Shown here piece by piece: positions 58,543 to 64,000 of a stretch of 64,000 bases of DNA. The notes beneath the pieces are model-generated. The model worked only from the letters and a program-made list of their open reading frames with translations, searched no databases and was not told the origin of the DNA. The stretch is from Schizosaccharomyces osmophilus (taxonomy: Eukaryota > Ascomycota > Schizosaccharomycetes > Schizosaccharomycetales > Schizosaccharomycetaceae). Within the stretch, counting starts at the first letter, position 1; every line of letters begins with the position of its first letter. The position numbers and the translations under genes are program-made. The stretch spans positions 2,817,501 to 2,881,500 of the forward strand of contig NC_079239.1 of NCBI RefSeq assembly GCF_027921745.1. Reading direction: 5' to 3'.

Positions 58543-61117
58543 ATGGGGAAAAATGGATCACAATTAAAAAATTTAAAATCGTCTATCCGACAGGCGGATT
58601 TGTTTAGCGCGAAACCTGGTCGTAAAAAGGGAAAATCGAAAGGTGTAGATTCTCGAGAAGAGCGACAGACAAAAGTAGATAAAATTCAGACAGATGTATG
58701 TTTTATGATAAATTGAGTAACCTTATTTTTTACTAACTCGTATGCAGTTCAATTTGTTTGATCGACAATTCACGAGGAAAAAATTCGATGTAGGCGGTAG
58801 ACGCATCAAAGGTACTGAAGGCACTCCTGGCGTTAGTCGCAGTGTTGGCGAAGAAGTTCGAAAAAATACAATAGGTGAAAAGCTCAAGAAAAAGAATCAT
58901 GTGGGTGGTGTCATTGATCGCCGTTTTGGTGAAAACAATCCTCATTTATCTCTTGAGGACAAAATGCTTGAGCGTTTTAGTCGTGAACAGCAACGTCGTA
59001 GCAAAAAAGATATATACAATTTGGATTCAGAAAACGATGTCTTGACTCACGGAAAAAGACCCGTATCAGAATTGGATGACTTTGACGAACCCGATTTAGC
59101 TCTTAATGCCGAAGACGATGAGGGCCTAAACAACGAAGTTGTTCGTCGTATGCATTTTGGTGGTTTCGGAGAGGATGAGCCTCAAGAGGAAGAAGGTGAA
59201 CCAAAGCAAAAAAAGACCAAACATGAAGTCATGTCAGAGATCATTGCGAAGTCTAAAACGCATAAGGCAGAACGCCAAGCCGAGAAAGATGATTACGAAG
59301 GTGAACGTGAGAGATTAGATGAGGACATGGAAGACTTGCAAAGTGTGCTTTCGGATTTTAGAAAAGAGACAAGACGTAAACAAGCCGTAAAGAATCAAGC
59401 TTTGCGTCCCTCAGATGCTGATTCTCGGTATGATGAGTTTGTCCGAGAAATGGTATTTGATAGACGAGCTCGTCCTTCGGAAAGAACAAAGACCGAGGAA
59501 GAACTTGCTCAAATTGAAGCAGACCGTCTGCGTGAACTTGAAGACCAACGCCTTACTCGTATGCAAGATGATGAGGTTGATTATCCTGAAACACCAGAAA
59601 CCGAGGAAACAAGCGCCAATGCCACCGACAATGTTTTTGGTTTTGGCAAAGGTCTCACTTTGGAAGGTGAAGAAGAATCGGTGGAATCTTCCGAAAGTGA
59701 AGGTGAAGGTGAAGAAGAAGAGGAAGAGGAATGGGGAGGTATTGAGGAAGATTCTAAATCGGCTGATAATACGAAAAATGAGGTGAAAAACATCAAAAAA
59801 CCTTCAGAGGAAATTGTGTCAAATGGTAAACCTGCTAAGAAAGCATCGCTCGCTTATACCTATTCCTGTCCTACTTCACATAAACAATTTATGGGTATGA
59901 TTCAAGGTTTAAGCGTTGAAGATCAACTTATTGTTGTCACGCGTATTCGTACGCTTTATCATGTCAAGCTGCACCCAGAAAATAAAGCTCGTTTGGAAAA
60001 CTTCACTGTCGTACTTTTGCAGCATATTCTTTATTTATCAAAGAAATCGGAAGCATCCATGGAAATATTAGAGAAGCTCACTGACCATTTGGTATCTTTG
60101 GGACGTCAATTTCCCGAAACAATTAGTGTTTCTTTTATATCTGTGTTGGAAGGAATGCGTAATCGTTTATTGAACAGCTTTAAAGATCCTAATCTCAAAT
60201 TTCCTGATGTACAAGATCTCATGCTTTTTAATTTAGCCTGTTCCGTATTCCCTACGTCCGATAGGAAACACATTGTATTAAGCCCGATGGTTCTTACGAT
60301 GTGTGAATCATTGAGTCAATCACCATGGAGCACACTTTCTGATCTTTGTAGGAAACTATACTTGGCGAACGTTCTCTTGAAGTATCAACGTCTTAGTCAT
60401 CGTTATATTCCCGAAGTCATAGTTGTCCTTGGCCAGGTTTTGTATGTCCTTTGCCCTAGTGCAATGAAGACTATCCCTGGAACTTTTACTATCCCTGATA
60501 GCCTTCATGAGAAGCATAAAGCCTATGGTATTCAAGATTTATCTTTGGACGAGCCTCAGAAGCTTCGTCTTGTCGACTTAGCGTCCGTTCCTGTTTCAAA
60601 TCTTCAGTCATCGATAGTTATGGTTACGCTGAATCTTGTAAACGTTGCACAAAGTCTATATGCTAAGGAAAGCGCATTCTTGGAGATATATGAACCAATA
60701 TTTGATTTATTGCAACTTTATGAATCAAAGAAGCAACTTCTCCATAAAACTTTGTCAGAAAAGTTGACTCAGACTACAGAAAAATTGGCCACATTGCTCG
60801 AGTCTGCTAAGAGGGTGCGTAAACCTTTAACTTTACAAACACACAGACCTGTGGGTATCGTTAGTCAATTGCCTAAATTTGAAGAAGGTTACTCAGTCGA
60901 CAGAACTTCCTATGACATTGACCCTGAAAGAGCTGAACATAATAAGCTTCGTGCTCAACATCGGGATGCCAAGAAAGGTGCCATTCGTACACTTCGTAAA
61001 GATGCAAGATATATTGCTCGTGAAAGACAAAAGGAACAACGTTCCAAAGACAAAGTATACAATGACAAAATGGGTAAACTTCAAAATCGTTTGCAGCACT
61101 TTGATTCAGCTGTATAA
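58543..61117 (+). CDS. nop14: nucleolar protein Nop14
   Basis: Two exons: 58543-58695 and 58748-61117, joined in phase 0 to 840 residues. Exon 1 encodes MGKNGSQLKNLKSSIRQADLF, a lysine-rich start, and exon 2 opens FNLFDRQFTRKKFDVGGRRIKG, the most conserved piece of the Nop14 family (with GVSRSVGEE and RTIGEKL-like text). The middle is acidic (EEEEEEEWGG). The C-terminal half is helical and ends in a basic tail with RKDARYIARERQKEQR. Nop14 is part of the small-subunit processome and is needed for 18S rRNA maturation and 40S export, binding Noc4 and Emg1. The intron has donor GTATGT and branch ACTAAC. The first exon was found only through splicing. Confidence 0.95.
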
Positions 61118-61496
61118 AGCAAAAAAAGAAAAGGCAAATTTAGGAAGGCTACTATTTCATAATCATATTCTCGGGGTTTCGGTTAACATGGGTGTTTAAC
61201 TTTCTTATGGATTAGATATTAATAATATGTGGATACATGTTTTAGAATCTATATAAGGACAATAAAAAACATAAAATTTGGTTAACATAAATGAATTGAA
61301 TATCTAATATTCGTTAAAAGTATAACCAATTAAACAAAAAGGAGCACCTTACAAAGAAATAACAGCTTGGTGGTCTATGATAATGAAGTCTTTTGGTTCA
61401 TAGATATAGATATAAGGCGAACAAAGCCAAAAAGATCAAAGTAGCGGGTATTGTTTTTAATATAAAATATAGATGAAAAAATCATGAGCTTGGCAT
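61118..61496. other. nop14-trr1 convergent 3' spacer
   Basis: AT-rich; holds both gene ends. No other feature is seen. Confidence 0.5.
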
Positions 61497-63000
61497 TTAG
61501 TTGGTGTTTTGATCTTCCAATTCTTCAATATAGTGCATAGCTAGGAGGGCAGCTTGGCAACCGCTTCCGGCAGAAGTGATGGCTTGGCGATAAACCTTGT
61601 CTTGAACATCACCAGCGGCAAAGAATCCTGGGATGGAGGTGTGAGGTGTACCGTTAATGGTCTGAAGGTAGCCTTCAGCATCCAATTCGACTTGTCCCTT
61701 AACAAGATCGGTAGCGGGAATGTGGCCGATGGCATAGAAAAGACCGCTGACCTTGAGGTCAGACGAATCACCGGTAATGGTGTTCTTTACACGAAGGTTA
61801 TTTAAGAGTTTGCCATCACCTTGAGCTTCCTCGGTAACGGTGTTCCAGAGAACCTCAACCTTGGGATTATTGAGCAAACGCTTAGCCATGATAGGAGAAG
61901 CACGGAGCTTCTCACGACGGACCAAAACGTAGACCTTGCTGCCGTACTTGGTCAAAAATTGGGCTTCTTCAGCGGCAGAGTCACCACCACCAACGACAGC
62001 AAGAGGCTTGTTACGGTAGATGGGGACGGCACCGTCGCAGACAGCGCAAGCAGAGATACCGGCTTGCCAATACTTCTCTTCACCAGGGATGTGAAGACGA
62101 CGGGCGGAAGCACCAGTAGCCAAAATGACACTATCGGCGGTAAGGGGAGCACCTTCTTCCGCGCCTTCTAGCCAAAACTTGAAGGGACGAGAAGAAAGAT
62201 CCAATTTGGAAACAGTTTCACTGACAATAGTAGTACCGAAACGTTCGGATTGGGCACGAAACTTCTCAGTCAATTCAGTGCCGTTAACACCGTCAGGGAA
62301 TCCGGGAAAGTTTTCGACATCGGTTGTGGTGGTTAATTGACCACCGGCGGCGATACCGTTGGCAAGCATACCCTCGTACATGACAGGGCTTAATTCACCA
62401 CGGGCCAGGTAGATAGCAGCAGTATGGCCAGCAGGACCAGATCCAATAATAGCAACTTTTGAATGAGACACTAGAGACTAGGTTAGCATAGGTACACCAC
62501 AAAAAAAAAAAAAAAAAAGCAGCGCCACAGAAGAAAAGAAAGAAAGGAACCGTATAGATTGAAAAACTTGCTCCATCTTTAATCCTCTATCAAATCTGAA
62601 TGCGTTTTCTTCTTTTCTATTGCATATTCTTTTCTATAGAAAAATACATACTAGTTATAGAATTAAATAGAGAAGTAGAAATCCAGCGACTTTGTAGTTG
62701 AGAAAATGTTGGTGGTGAGATGAGTTGGAATCTGTTTGAAAAAGTACCACCAGTGGAAGCGTATGGTGTTTGATCAAAAAACTTGTTCTTTCTCGAGTAT
62801 GAGATTTGTTTTCTGAATGAAAGATGCGAGAACTTGGCGGCAATATATAAGTTTCCAGAATTTGAAACACTTAGTCTTGATGAATAATGAAGGGTGTTCG
62901 AGACGCCTAGAATTTTATCAAGACGAAGTCGTCGATAAAGTCCAGTACTAGGCGAGAATGTGTTTGCTGACAAAGGGAGTTGGGAGTTATATAAGCGCAT
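61497..63000 (-). CDS. trr1: thioredoxin reductase, with predicted mitochondrial leader exon
   Basis: Exon 2 (62470-61497) encodes the whole enzyme: FAD motif [10 protein letters not shown], redox-active CAVC, NADPH motif GGGDSAAEE and FAAGDVQD near the end; 324 residues counting the initial Met. This exon opens TG TCT CAT, so no ATG exists at its start. Splicing to exon 1 (63000-62652; donor GTATGT, branch GCTAACC, acceptor CTAG) places an A before TG and creates the codon ATG. Exon 1 is open in the same frame from ATG 63000 for 116 codons. Its product is rich in R, K, S and N with very few acidic residues and reads like a mitochondrial presequence ([15 protein letters not shown] to [12 protein letters not shown]). 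The gene can thus make a 440-residue mitochondrial form and a 324-residue cytosolic form. The enzyme reduces thioredoxin with NADPH and is needed for Pap1 oxidation-state control in S. pombe. Intron 62471-62651 includes a T18 tract (62501-62518, A on plus). Confidence 0.9.
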
Positions 63001-63723
63001 ACCAAAAAGCAAAAAAGAAGAAGAAAAAAGACAACAATATCTCAAAAATGTTTATAAAATCCACGGCTGCTACAAAAGACAAGGAAATGAAGGTGAATGG
63101 AGCGAAGAGTCTACGAACAACGATGACTAAGAAAGAAAAACGAATATCAGCCAGAGGCAACGTTTTGAATAGATAGAAAAAACTAATAAAAAATAAAATG
63201 AAAACAGAAAAAATGGATAGGAAGGAAGAACTACGGGTTTTTTGGTTTTCATAAACATTAATAAGCTGGGATTCGAACCCTAGTGCTGTGGCACAACTAC
63301 AGAACTTTAACGTGGTATGTTGTTATATTTTAGTGAAATGTGGTGTAATATCAAACAATTTTAACACAATCAAACAACGTCCTCGATATATAGTATTGCG
63401 TAATATGTAATTATGAACTAAGAAACGATAACGAAACCTAATGTAGGAAAAAATGCTGGTTGGAAAAGGGGAAAAGAAGTTTGAAAGAGATTTGTTTGTT
63501 TTGCAATTGATTTTTAATGTTTTCTATCAACAAGCTAGAGGAAAAAACAAGTAAATCATTCTCGAAGAGACTTTCCTTGGAAGGTTTTGTTTACTGTACT
63601 CGAAAGAGGTCCACCGTGTAAGTTACACCAGCAATCGTCTGTTGTGTAGGAGTAGCTGGTTCTACTACGACAGGATTTGGCTTGTCTTTTCATCCATTGA
63701 ATTTCCCTCTCGACCAAGCGTTT
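63001..63723. other. trr1-erg26 divergent intergenic region
   Basis: A 723-base region with both promoters. It carries an orphan RNA polymerase III B-box (63268-63280) but no tRNA around it. A 72-codon ORF at 62958-63176 overlaps the trr1 leader on the other strand and is not credible. Confidence 0.5.
63268..63280 (-). promoter_or_regulatory. orphan B-box (candidate TFIIIC/COC site)
   Basis: Minus strand GGGTTCGAATCCC includes the exact TFIIIC B-box GGTTCGAATCC. I tried to fold a tRNA on the minus strand (63340-63255), but no acceptor stem, D arm or A-box was found. Orphan B-boxes bound by TFIIIC without polymerase III are known in fission yeast as COC sites. A decayed tRNA is the alternative. 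Confidence 0.6.
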
Positions 63724-64000
63724 ATGCATTCTGTTTTAGTAATTGGAAGCGGGTTCCTCGGAAGCCACATCATTCGGCAATTATGCAAGCGTGAACAACT
63801 CCGAATTGCTGCGTTTGATCTTTTCGACAATGAAAAGCTGAATCAAGAAGTGGGCCACCGGTTCACCATGTACACTGGTGACTTGACAAAAAATGAAGAT
63901 TTAGATCGTGTTTTTTCTGCCTTCCAGCCCCAAACTGTCATCCATACGGCATCCCCTGTGCACAACTTGGGCCGTGACATTTATTTTCAAATAAACGTAA
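63724..64000 (+). CDS. erg26: sterol C-4 decarboxylase / 3-beta-hydroxysteroid dehydrogenase, N-terminal part
   Basis: The window ends inside this gene; 92 codons are present. MHSVLVIGSGFLGSHIIRQL carries the NAD-binding GxGFLGxH motif of extended short-chain dehydrogenases. It is followed by AAFDLFD at the second strand, GDLT, and VIHTASPVHNLGRDIYFQINV, which matches the VIHTASP motif of Erg26/NSDHL. Erg26 oxidises and decarboxylates C-4 sterol intermediates in ergosterol synthesis at the ER. From memory, the S. pombe trr1 neighbour is annotated as a 3-beta-hydroxysteroid dehydrogenase, in line with this call. Active-site YxxxK lies beyond the window. Confidence 0.88.
   Translation, partial: MHSVLVIGSGFLGSHIIRQLCKREQLRIAAFDLFDNEKLNQEVGHRFTMYTGDLTKNEDLDRVFSAFQPQTVIHTASPVHNLGRDIYFQINV

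What the first reader, a model, noticed from the sequence alone, without database searches (positions are those of the whole stretch)
61497..63000. trr1: cytosolic start codon assembled by splicing, behind an ATG-free mitochondrial leader
Seen: exon 2 begins TG TCT CAT and the proposed exon 1 ends in A, so splicing makes ATG. Exon 1 is open in the same frame for 116 codons from ATG 63000, and its product is basic and almost acid-free. Between 63000 and 62652 there is no other ATG in any of the three minus-strand frames, where about five would be expected in 345 bases of average sequence. That absence suits a scanning ribosome, or a shorter transcript, reaching the spliced ATG. Known: fungi need thioredoxin reductase in cytosol and mitochondria; budding yeast uses two genes. 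Inference: one gene serves both places, and unspliced RNA makes neither enzyme, so intron retention could switch it off.
Basis: partly seen in the sequence, partly recalled or inferred. Interest (0 to 1): 0.8.

Follow-up and report, generated by a model that had tools for sequence, protein, structure and literature searches.

The report
One reductase gene, two start codons
A fission yeast's only thioredoxin reductase gene appears able to make a mitochondrial and a cytosolic enzyme from one gene, with the cytosolic start codon formed only when an intron is spliced out; this would explain how its mitochondria get the enzyme, but no RNA or localisation data were available to prove it.

Summary
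The genome is very likely Schizosaccharomyces osmophilus (contig sizes). Exon 2 of its only detected thioredoxin reductase gene starts TG behind a consensus intron, 62651-62471; exon 1 ends in A, so splicing makes ATG. Exon 1 is open in frame for 116 codons from ATG 63000, with no other ATG. Zero ATGs is rare (0 of 80 sampled ORF starts) but modest for this composition (6-21% of shuffles). The open frame is rarer: 699 of 100,000 shuffles; open, acid-poor and basic together, 30 of 100,000. A separate thioredoxin has a presequence-like N terminus. Best reading: one gene, two N termini, probably set by transcription starts on either side of ATG 63000: a mitochondrial precursor and a cytosolic enzyme. 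Against: the leader is no more amphipathic than its shuffles, its coding signal is weak, its composition is not coding-like. RNA, 5'-end, protein and sister-species data could not be reached. The intron-retention switch has no support. Single-gene dual targeting is known; the spliced cytosolic start codon is a small new variant.

The parts
62652..63000 (-). Exon 1: in-frame leader of 116 codons from ATG 63000, ending in the A of the spliced ATG
   Evidence: open frame in 699 of 100,000 dinucleotide shuffles
62471..62651 (-). Intron, 181 nt: GTATGT donor, T-run, CTAAC branch motif, TAG acceptor
   Evidence: of two GT[AG]NGN donor-like sites between 63723 and 62471 (63002, 62651) only this one leaves an A before exon 2 (other donor patterns were not scanned)
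61497..62470 (-). Exon 2: TG of the spliced ATG plus 323 codons of low-Mr thioredoxin reductase and the stop
   Evidence: (TIGR01292 382 bits, cut-off 343)
62998..63000 (-). ATG 1, start of the putative mitochondrial precursor; context TTTGGT-ATG-C
62677..62688 (-). Leader residues 105-108, RWIS: resembles an R-3 presequence cleavage site (motif recalled); would leave 9 residues before the cytosolic Met
   Evidence: only R-x-[FYLI]-[STA] match in the leader; 71 of 699 open shuffles also have one in their last 25 residues
63124..63130 (-). TTAGTCA, Pap1-like site (consensus recalled), upstream of both starts
   Evidence: motif class 0.7 per kb on this strand, so chance is not excluded
63051..63056 (-). 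TATAAA, 56 nt upstream of ATG 1; starts 25-60 nt downstream would fall on either side of ATG 1 (spacing recalled)
   Evidence: TATA[AT]A 1.39 per kb on this strand
62988..62993 (-). TATATA inside the first codons of the leader: possible promoter element of the short mRNA
   Evidence: chance not excluded

Best explanation
This is the only detected thioredoxin reductase gene of the genome (very likely S. osmophilus), and it most likely makes two enzymes that differ at the N terminus. mRNAs that begin between 63251 and 63001 meet ATG 63000 first; after splicing of 62651-62471 they encode a 440-residue precursor with a basic, acid-poor leader that is imported into mitochondria and trimmed near residue 107. 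mRNAs that begin inside exon 1 (62999-62652) contain no ATG until splicing joins A to TG; they encode the 324-residue cytosolic enzyme. Both forms need the same splice. Shown on sequence: splice signals, frame, lack of other ATGs, single gene by similarity search, enzyme family. Inferred: use of the splice, translation of the leader, its mitochondrial destination, and alternative transcription starts (rather than leaky scanning) as the selector. The confidence is for two products from one gene, whichever selector is used.
For: Exon 1 reads open in phase with exon 2, as 699 of 100,000 shuffles do; open with at most 2 acids and net at least +12, 30 of 100,000; with no ATG as well, 3 of 100,000 (thresholds set at the observed values). 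Its frame scores +0.073 bits per codon against -0.059 and -0.176 for the other two sense frames. Of 80 sampled ORF starts, 2 have at most 2 acids, 8 have net at least +12, none both. One TrxR detected: TIGR01292 382 bits, next hit 51 bits, under the cut-off; protein search next hit 27% identity, E 1.6e-4. A thioredoxin in C1 has a first exon that is basic and acid-free over its first 30 residues (L016). S. pombe is reported to have one TrxR and a mitochondrial Trx2 (PMC5501661, passages). The match to the chains named Thioredoxin reductase 1 (3d8x, 3itj; S. cerevisiae by recall) begins two residues after the spliced Met, so that Met is at a fitting place for a cytosolic N terminus. The glutathione reductase gene of the same genome has no ATG-started leader directly upstream in frame (a spliced upstream exon was not looked for).
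Against: The leader's best 18-residue hydrophobic moment is at residues 54-71, not at the N terminus, and 940 of 1000 shuffled leaders reach it; 73 of 80 ORF N termini do too. Its coding score is near the bottom of ORF starts (median 0.212, minimum 0.042 of 19). Its G content (11.7%) is below coding starts (mean 20.5%, 1 of 80 as low) and also below upstream DNA (mean 17.0%, 7 of 70 as low), and low G by itself lowers D, E and ATG. No sister-species comparison was possible. 116 residues is long for a presequence (recalled).
Confidence: 0.68

Rival explanations
1. Exon 1 is only a long 5' UTR of a cytosolic enzyme. It is G-poor and free of ATG as an untranslated leader of a well-expressed gene should be, and the open frame is luck. 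The mitochondrial thioredoxin is reduced some other way or needs no reductase.
For: Low G content and weak coding signal; no amphipathic N terminus; [quoted passage not shown] pombe is named in the title of a cited paper (title seen in a reference list; the paper itself was not held).
Against: Open frame in phase in 699 of 100,000 shuffles, with acid-poor basic composition in 30 of 100,000. No other TrxR detected to serve mitochondria.
Confidence: 0.22
2. One mRNA with a start upstream of 63000; ribosomes translate the precursor from ATG 1 and leak past it through the ATG-free 345 nt to the spliced ATG. (A variant of the two-product reading: its odds lie within the 0.68 given there.)
For: No ATG intervenes. 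A TATAAA 56 nt upstream of ATG 1 could give a very short 5' UTR, which favours leakage (principle recalled).
Against: By a small matrix (19 window ORFs, trr1's own internal ATG 62381 among them), ATG 1 scores +2.0 and the spliced ATG -1.4, so context does not favour leakage; the matrix is too small to be firm.
Confidence: 0.25
3. Intron retention is a regulated switch that turns both forms off.
For: Unspliced RNA codes for neither enzyme: 127 aa ending at 62617, and the first in-frame ATG of exon 2 at 62381 lies past the FAD motif. The intron is 181 nt with a long T run.
Against: The same holds for most introns in coding genes (general knowledge); consensus donor, branch motif and acceptor suggest efficient splicing. 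No expression data.
Confidence: 0.07
4. Only the long precursor is made, and part of it stays in the cytosol after incomplete import.
For: ATG 1 is the first ATG for starts from 63251 to 63001.
Against: The enzyme body has its own Met two residues before the match to Thioredoxin reductase 1 chains begins, and the leader has no ATG to stop scanning to it.
Confidence: 0.05

Closest known systems
Kluyveromyces lactis KlTRR1 (KLLA0E21605g)
   Same: Low-Mr TrxR whose gene encodes a predicted N-terminal mitochondrial signal (29 residues); TrxR activity in cytosolic and mitochondrial fractions, given there as unpublished data (PMC2754438, section 14 read)
   Different: The section says one gene for both places cannot yet be stated and mentions no split start codon; here the leader is 116 codons in its own exon
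Saccharomyces cerevisiae TRR1/TRR2
   Same: Same enzyme in cytosol and mitochondria (PMC2754438); exon 2 matches chains named Thioredoxin reductase 1 at E 3e-151 (organism recalled)
   Different: Two genes rather than one (PMC2754438)
VAS1, HTS1 and CRS1 of S. cerevisiae: alternative transcription starts selecting mitochondrial or cytosolic tRNA synthetase (PMC9604717, passages)
   Same: One gene, long and short mRNA, presequence lost in the short form
   Different: The passages describe choice by mRNA 5' ends and mention no splicing; here the downstream ATG also needs splicing
Cryptococcus genes with weak first and strong second in-frame AUG (PMC7049704, passages)
   Same: Second in-frame AUG behind a predicted mitochondrial signal
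   Different: The authors report that S. pombe does not show this enrichment; here the context of ATG 1 does not look weak (small matrix)

Membership tests
Low-Mr thioredoxin reductase | Full-length family profile match above the curated cut-off | tested here: met
   TIGR01292 382.4 bits against 343.45, positions 2-300 of 300
Low-Mr thioredoxin reductase | FAD-binding GxGxxG and redox CxxC | tested here: met
   GSGPAG and CAVC in P0002; the GxGxx part and CAVC are kept in the three aligned thioredoxin reductase chains
Single-gene dual targeting by alternative N termini | Only one gene for the enzyme in the genome | tested here: met
   intron-blind search, so a split copy of weak similarity could be missed
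Single-gene dual targeting by alternative N termini | In-frame leader from an upstream ATG and a second ATG at the cytosolic N terminus | tested here: met
Single-gene dual targeting by alternative N termini | Leader is a mitochondrial targeting sequence | tested here: inconclusive
   Basic and acid-poor, R-3-like site, but not amphipathic above shuffles; no trained predictor available
Single-gene dual targeting by alternative N termini | Two mRNA 5' ends or two proteins in two compartments | not testable with these tools
   No RNA or protein data held
Start codon assembled by splicing | Consensus intron between A and TG | tested here: met
   GTATGT...CTAAC...TAG, 62651-62471; consensus recalled
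Start codon assembled by splicing | Junction observed in RNA | not testable with these tools
   No reads held

The most novel reading that the evidence does not exclude
The cytosolic start codon exists only in spliced RNA, and cells use this: splicing efficiency of one intron, together with the choice of transcription start around ATG 63000, sets thioredoxin reductase in two compartments under oxidative or osmotic stress, in an arrangement kept across fission yeasts.
Probability: 0.1. Interest if true: 0.65.

Novelty: new variant of a known kind. Interest (0 to 1): 0.42.

Why it matters
S. pombe is described as having a single thioredoxin reductase and a thioredoxin in mitochondria (PMC5501661 passages). 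How mitochondria obtain the enzyme is not stated in the passages I saw. A leader exon upstream of the cytosolic start would answer that and is directly testable by 5'-end mapping and tagging. It also warns that proteins whose start codon is split by an intron can hide longer isoforms from gene models.

Tried and rejected
Literature: ten searches (two searches were aimed at the species and at KlTRR1). Judged by the listed titles and abstract starts, none reports two starts or a split start codon for fission-yeast trr1; some searches listed 25 of 28, 15 of 20, 2 of 3 and 20 of 26 papers. The S. pombe systematic name SPBC3F6.03 (recalled) occurs in one held paper, a differential-display study (passages). 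Only open-licence papers are held, so absence there proves little.

Sister species: none could be reached. The tool states that the window's genome has no relatives in its whole-genome set. A genome-contig scan (bacteria and archaea) with the leader found 114 pattern matches but no relative, as expected and uninformative.

A different upstream exon supplying the ATG: rejected as unlikely. Of the two GT[AG]NGN sites between 63723 and 62471, 63002 would join G to TG and give no ATG. The nearer TAG at 62480-62478 would add 7 nt, shift the frame, and lies 5 nt from the branch A (counted's intron).

Hydrophobic-moment test for a targeting helix: negative. Pfam on the leader: no family. Second copy of the leader in the genome: none. 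Scans of the B-box-like stretch: no tRNA by ARAGORN with its bacterial setting; two Rfam matches up to E 1 in 60500-64000, both far below gathering score.

Full report
Where this is. The window lies in a genome of 11,412,266 bases in 3 contigs, two of 5,565,604 and 3,504,162 bases, so the third has 2,342,500. A passage of the S. osmophilus genome paper gives 5.57, 3.50 and 2.35 Mb, 11.42 Mb in all (PMC10085805, passages only). The third contig and the total differ by about 0.01 Mb; the species is very likely Schizosaccharomyces osmophilus.

Observation. On the minus strand, exon 1 (63000-62652) is 349 nt, open in one frame, and ends in A. The intron 62651-62471 starts GTATGT and ends with CTAAC followed by CTAGTCTCTAG. 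Exon 2 starts TG TCT CAT. Splicing gives A+TG and one continuous frame: 116 leader codons, Met, 323 enzyme residues. No other ATG lies in exon 1, and the first stop upstream in frame is at 63054. Upstream ATGs on this strand, back to 63723, are at 63697, 63693, 63559, 63258 and 63252; the 63258 frame is 43 codons long and closes before 63000. So a transcript starting between 63251 and 63001 meets ATG 63000 first, and one starting within 62999-62652 meets the spliced ATG first.

How surprising it is. Of 345-nt single-strand windows taken every 15 nt (overlapping), 208 of 34,248 have none; of those about as G-poor as the leader, 25 of 650. With the leader's own composition, zero ATGs arise in 6.2% of dinucleotide shuffles and 18.8% of codon-order shuffles, and in 20.6% of synonymous resamplings. 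The ATG gap is therefore real but mostly a consequence of low G. The open frame is stronger evidence: 699 of 100,000 dinucleotide shuffles stay open (131 of 20,000); 30 of the 699 also have at most 2 acids and net charge of at least +12, and 3 also lack ATG. The thresholds were set at the observed values after seeing them.

Is the leader coding and mitochondrial? Its codon score (+0.073 bits per codon) is above the other two sense frames (-0.059, -0.176) but low among ORF starts (median 0.212, minimum 0.042 of 19 window ORFs, one of them trr1's own exon 2). It is basic and acid-poor: of 80 sampled ORF starts 2 have at most 2 acids, 8 have net +12 or more, none both. It carries RWIS at 105-108, which resembles an R-3 presequence cleavage site (recalled motif), and cutting there would leave nine residues before the cytosolic Met; but 71 of 699 open shuffles have such a motif in their last 25 residues. 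Its hydrophobic moment gives no support: the maximum is at residues 54-71 and is reached by 940 of 1000 shuffled leaders. Its G content is below the means of coding starts and of upstream DNA alike. Pfam finds nothing in it and it has no second copy.

What the gene is. Exon 2 encodes a complete low-Mr thioredoxin reductase: TIGR01292 382 bits over a cut-off of 343, Pyr_redox_2, GSGPAG and CAVC. The three best PDB sequences are named thioredoxin reductase; two are Thioredoxin reductase 1 (3d8x, 3itj, E 3e-151; S. cerevisiae by recall), and the match begins two residues after the spliced Met. No second TrxR was found: the next genome hit is 27% identical at E 1.6e-4, and the next profile hit has 51 bits. 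Of 12 thioredoxin-family matches, one (L004) is a short ORF without a leader, and one (L008/L016) has a first exon that reads MNSFYRFSRGLRPLSHIKTGFAHRTFMNSS, basic and acid-free over these 30 residues. The S. pombe literature seen agrees: one TrxR, Trx2 in mitochondria (PMC5501661 passages; 'the only thioredoxin reductase', PMC8148214 passages). The glutathione reductase gene (PF02852 hit in C1; identity by eye) starts MPPTTKAFDYLVIGGGSG with no ATG-started leader directly upstream in frame, a contrast within the same genome; a spliced upstream exon was not looked for there.

Mechanism. The most economical reading is one promoter region with starts on either side of ATG 63000. TTAGTCA at 63130, TATAAA at 63056 and TATATA at 62993 are placed so that starts 25-60 nt downstream would fall on both sides; these spacings and the Pap1 consensus are recalled, and motifs of this frequency (0.7 and 1.39 per kb) are weak evidence. 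Leaky scanning is possible, but the context of ATG 63000 does not look weak (small matrix). Intron retention would abolish both forms, as for most coding introns; nothing shows regulation.

Known and new. Single-gene dual targeting through long and short mRNAs is established in fungi (PMC9604717 passages), and a TrxR gene with a predicted mitochondrial signal, and activity in both fractions as unpublished data, is reported for K. lactis, with one-gene origin left open (PMC2754438 section 14). New here, as far as the ten searches listed under Tried and rejected show, is the proposal for fission yeast and a cytosolic start codon that exists only after splicing. I rate it a new variant of a known kind, with the two-product reading at about 0.68, whichever selector is used.

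Noticed in passing
window 63269-63279, minus strand: GGTTCGAATCC, a perfect tRNA B-box-like motif without a detected tRNA gene (ARAGORN found 0 in the window; 0.05 matches expected by shuffles; the 52-base surroundings occur once in the genome at up to 3 mismatches). Between two divergent genes; reminiscent of extra-TFIIIC (COC/ETC) sites (recalled).
   Followed up: partly
window 62997-63002, minus strand: The leader's ATG sits inside GTATGC, a donor-like sequence; its use with the 62471 acceptor would remove the whole leader and leave no ATG.
   Followed up: partly
window, within intron 62651-62471: A long uninterrupted T run upstream of the branch motif, a possible site of length variation between strains that could change splicing.
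   Followed up: no
L017 (C1:2057500-2062500): The glutathione reductase gene has its first intron right after GGGSG and no ATG-started leader directly upstream, so if it is also in mitochondria it may get there differently.
   Followed up: partly
window 58742-61117 (+) and 63724 onward (+): Neighbours: a 791-aa ORF that looks Nop14-like and a divergent ORF that looks like an NAD-dependent epimerase or sterol dehydrogenase (by eye only).
   Followed up: no
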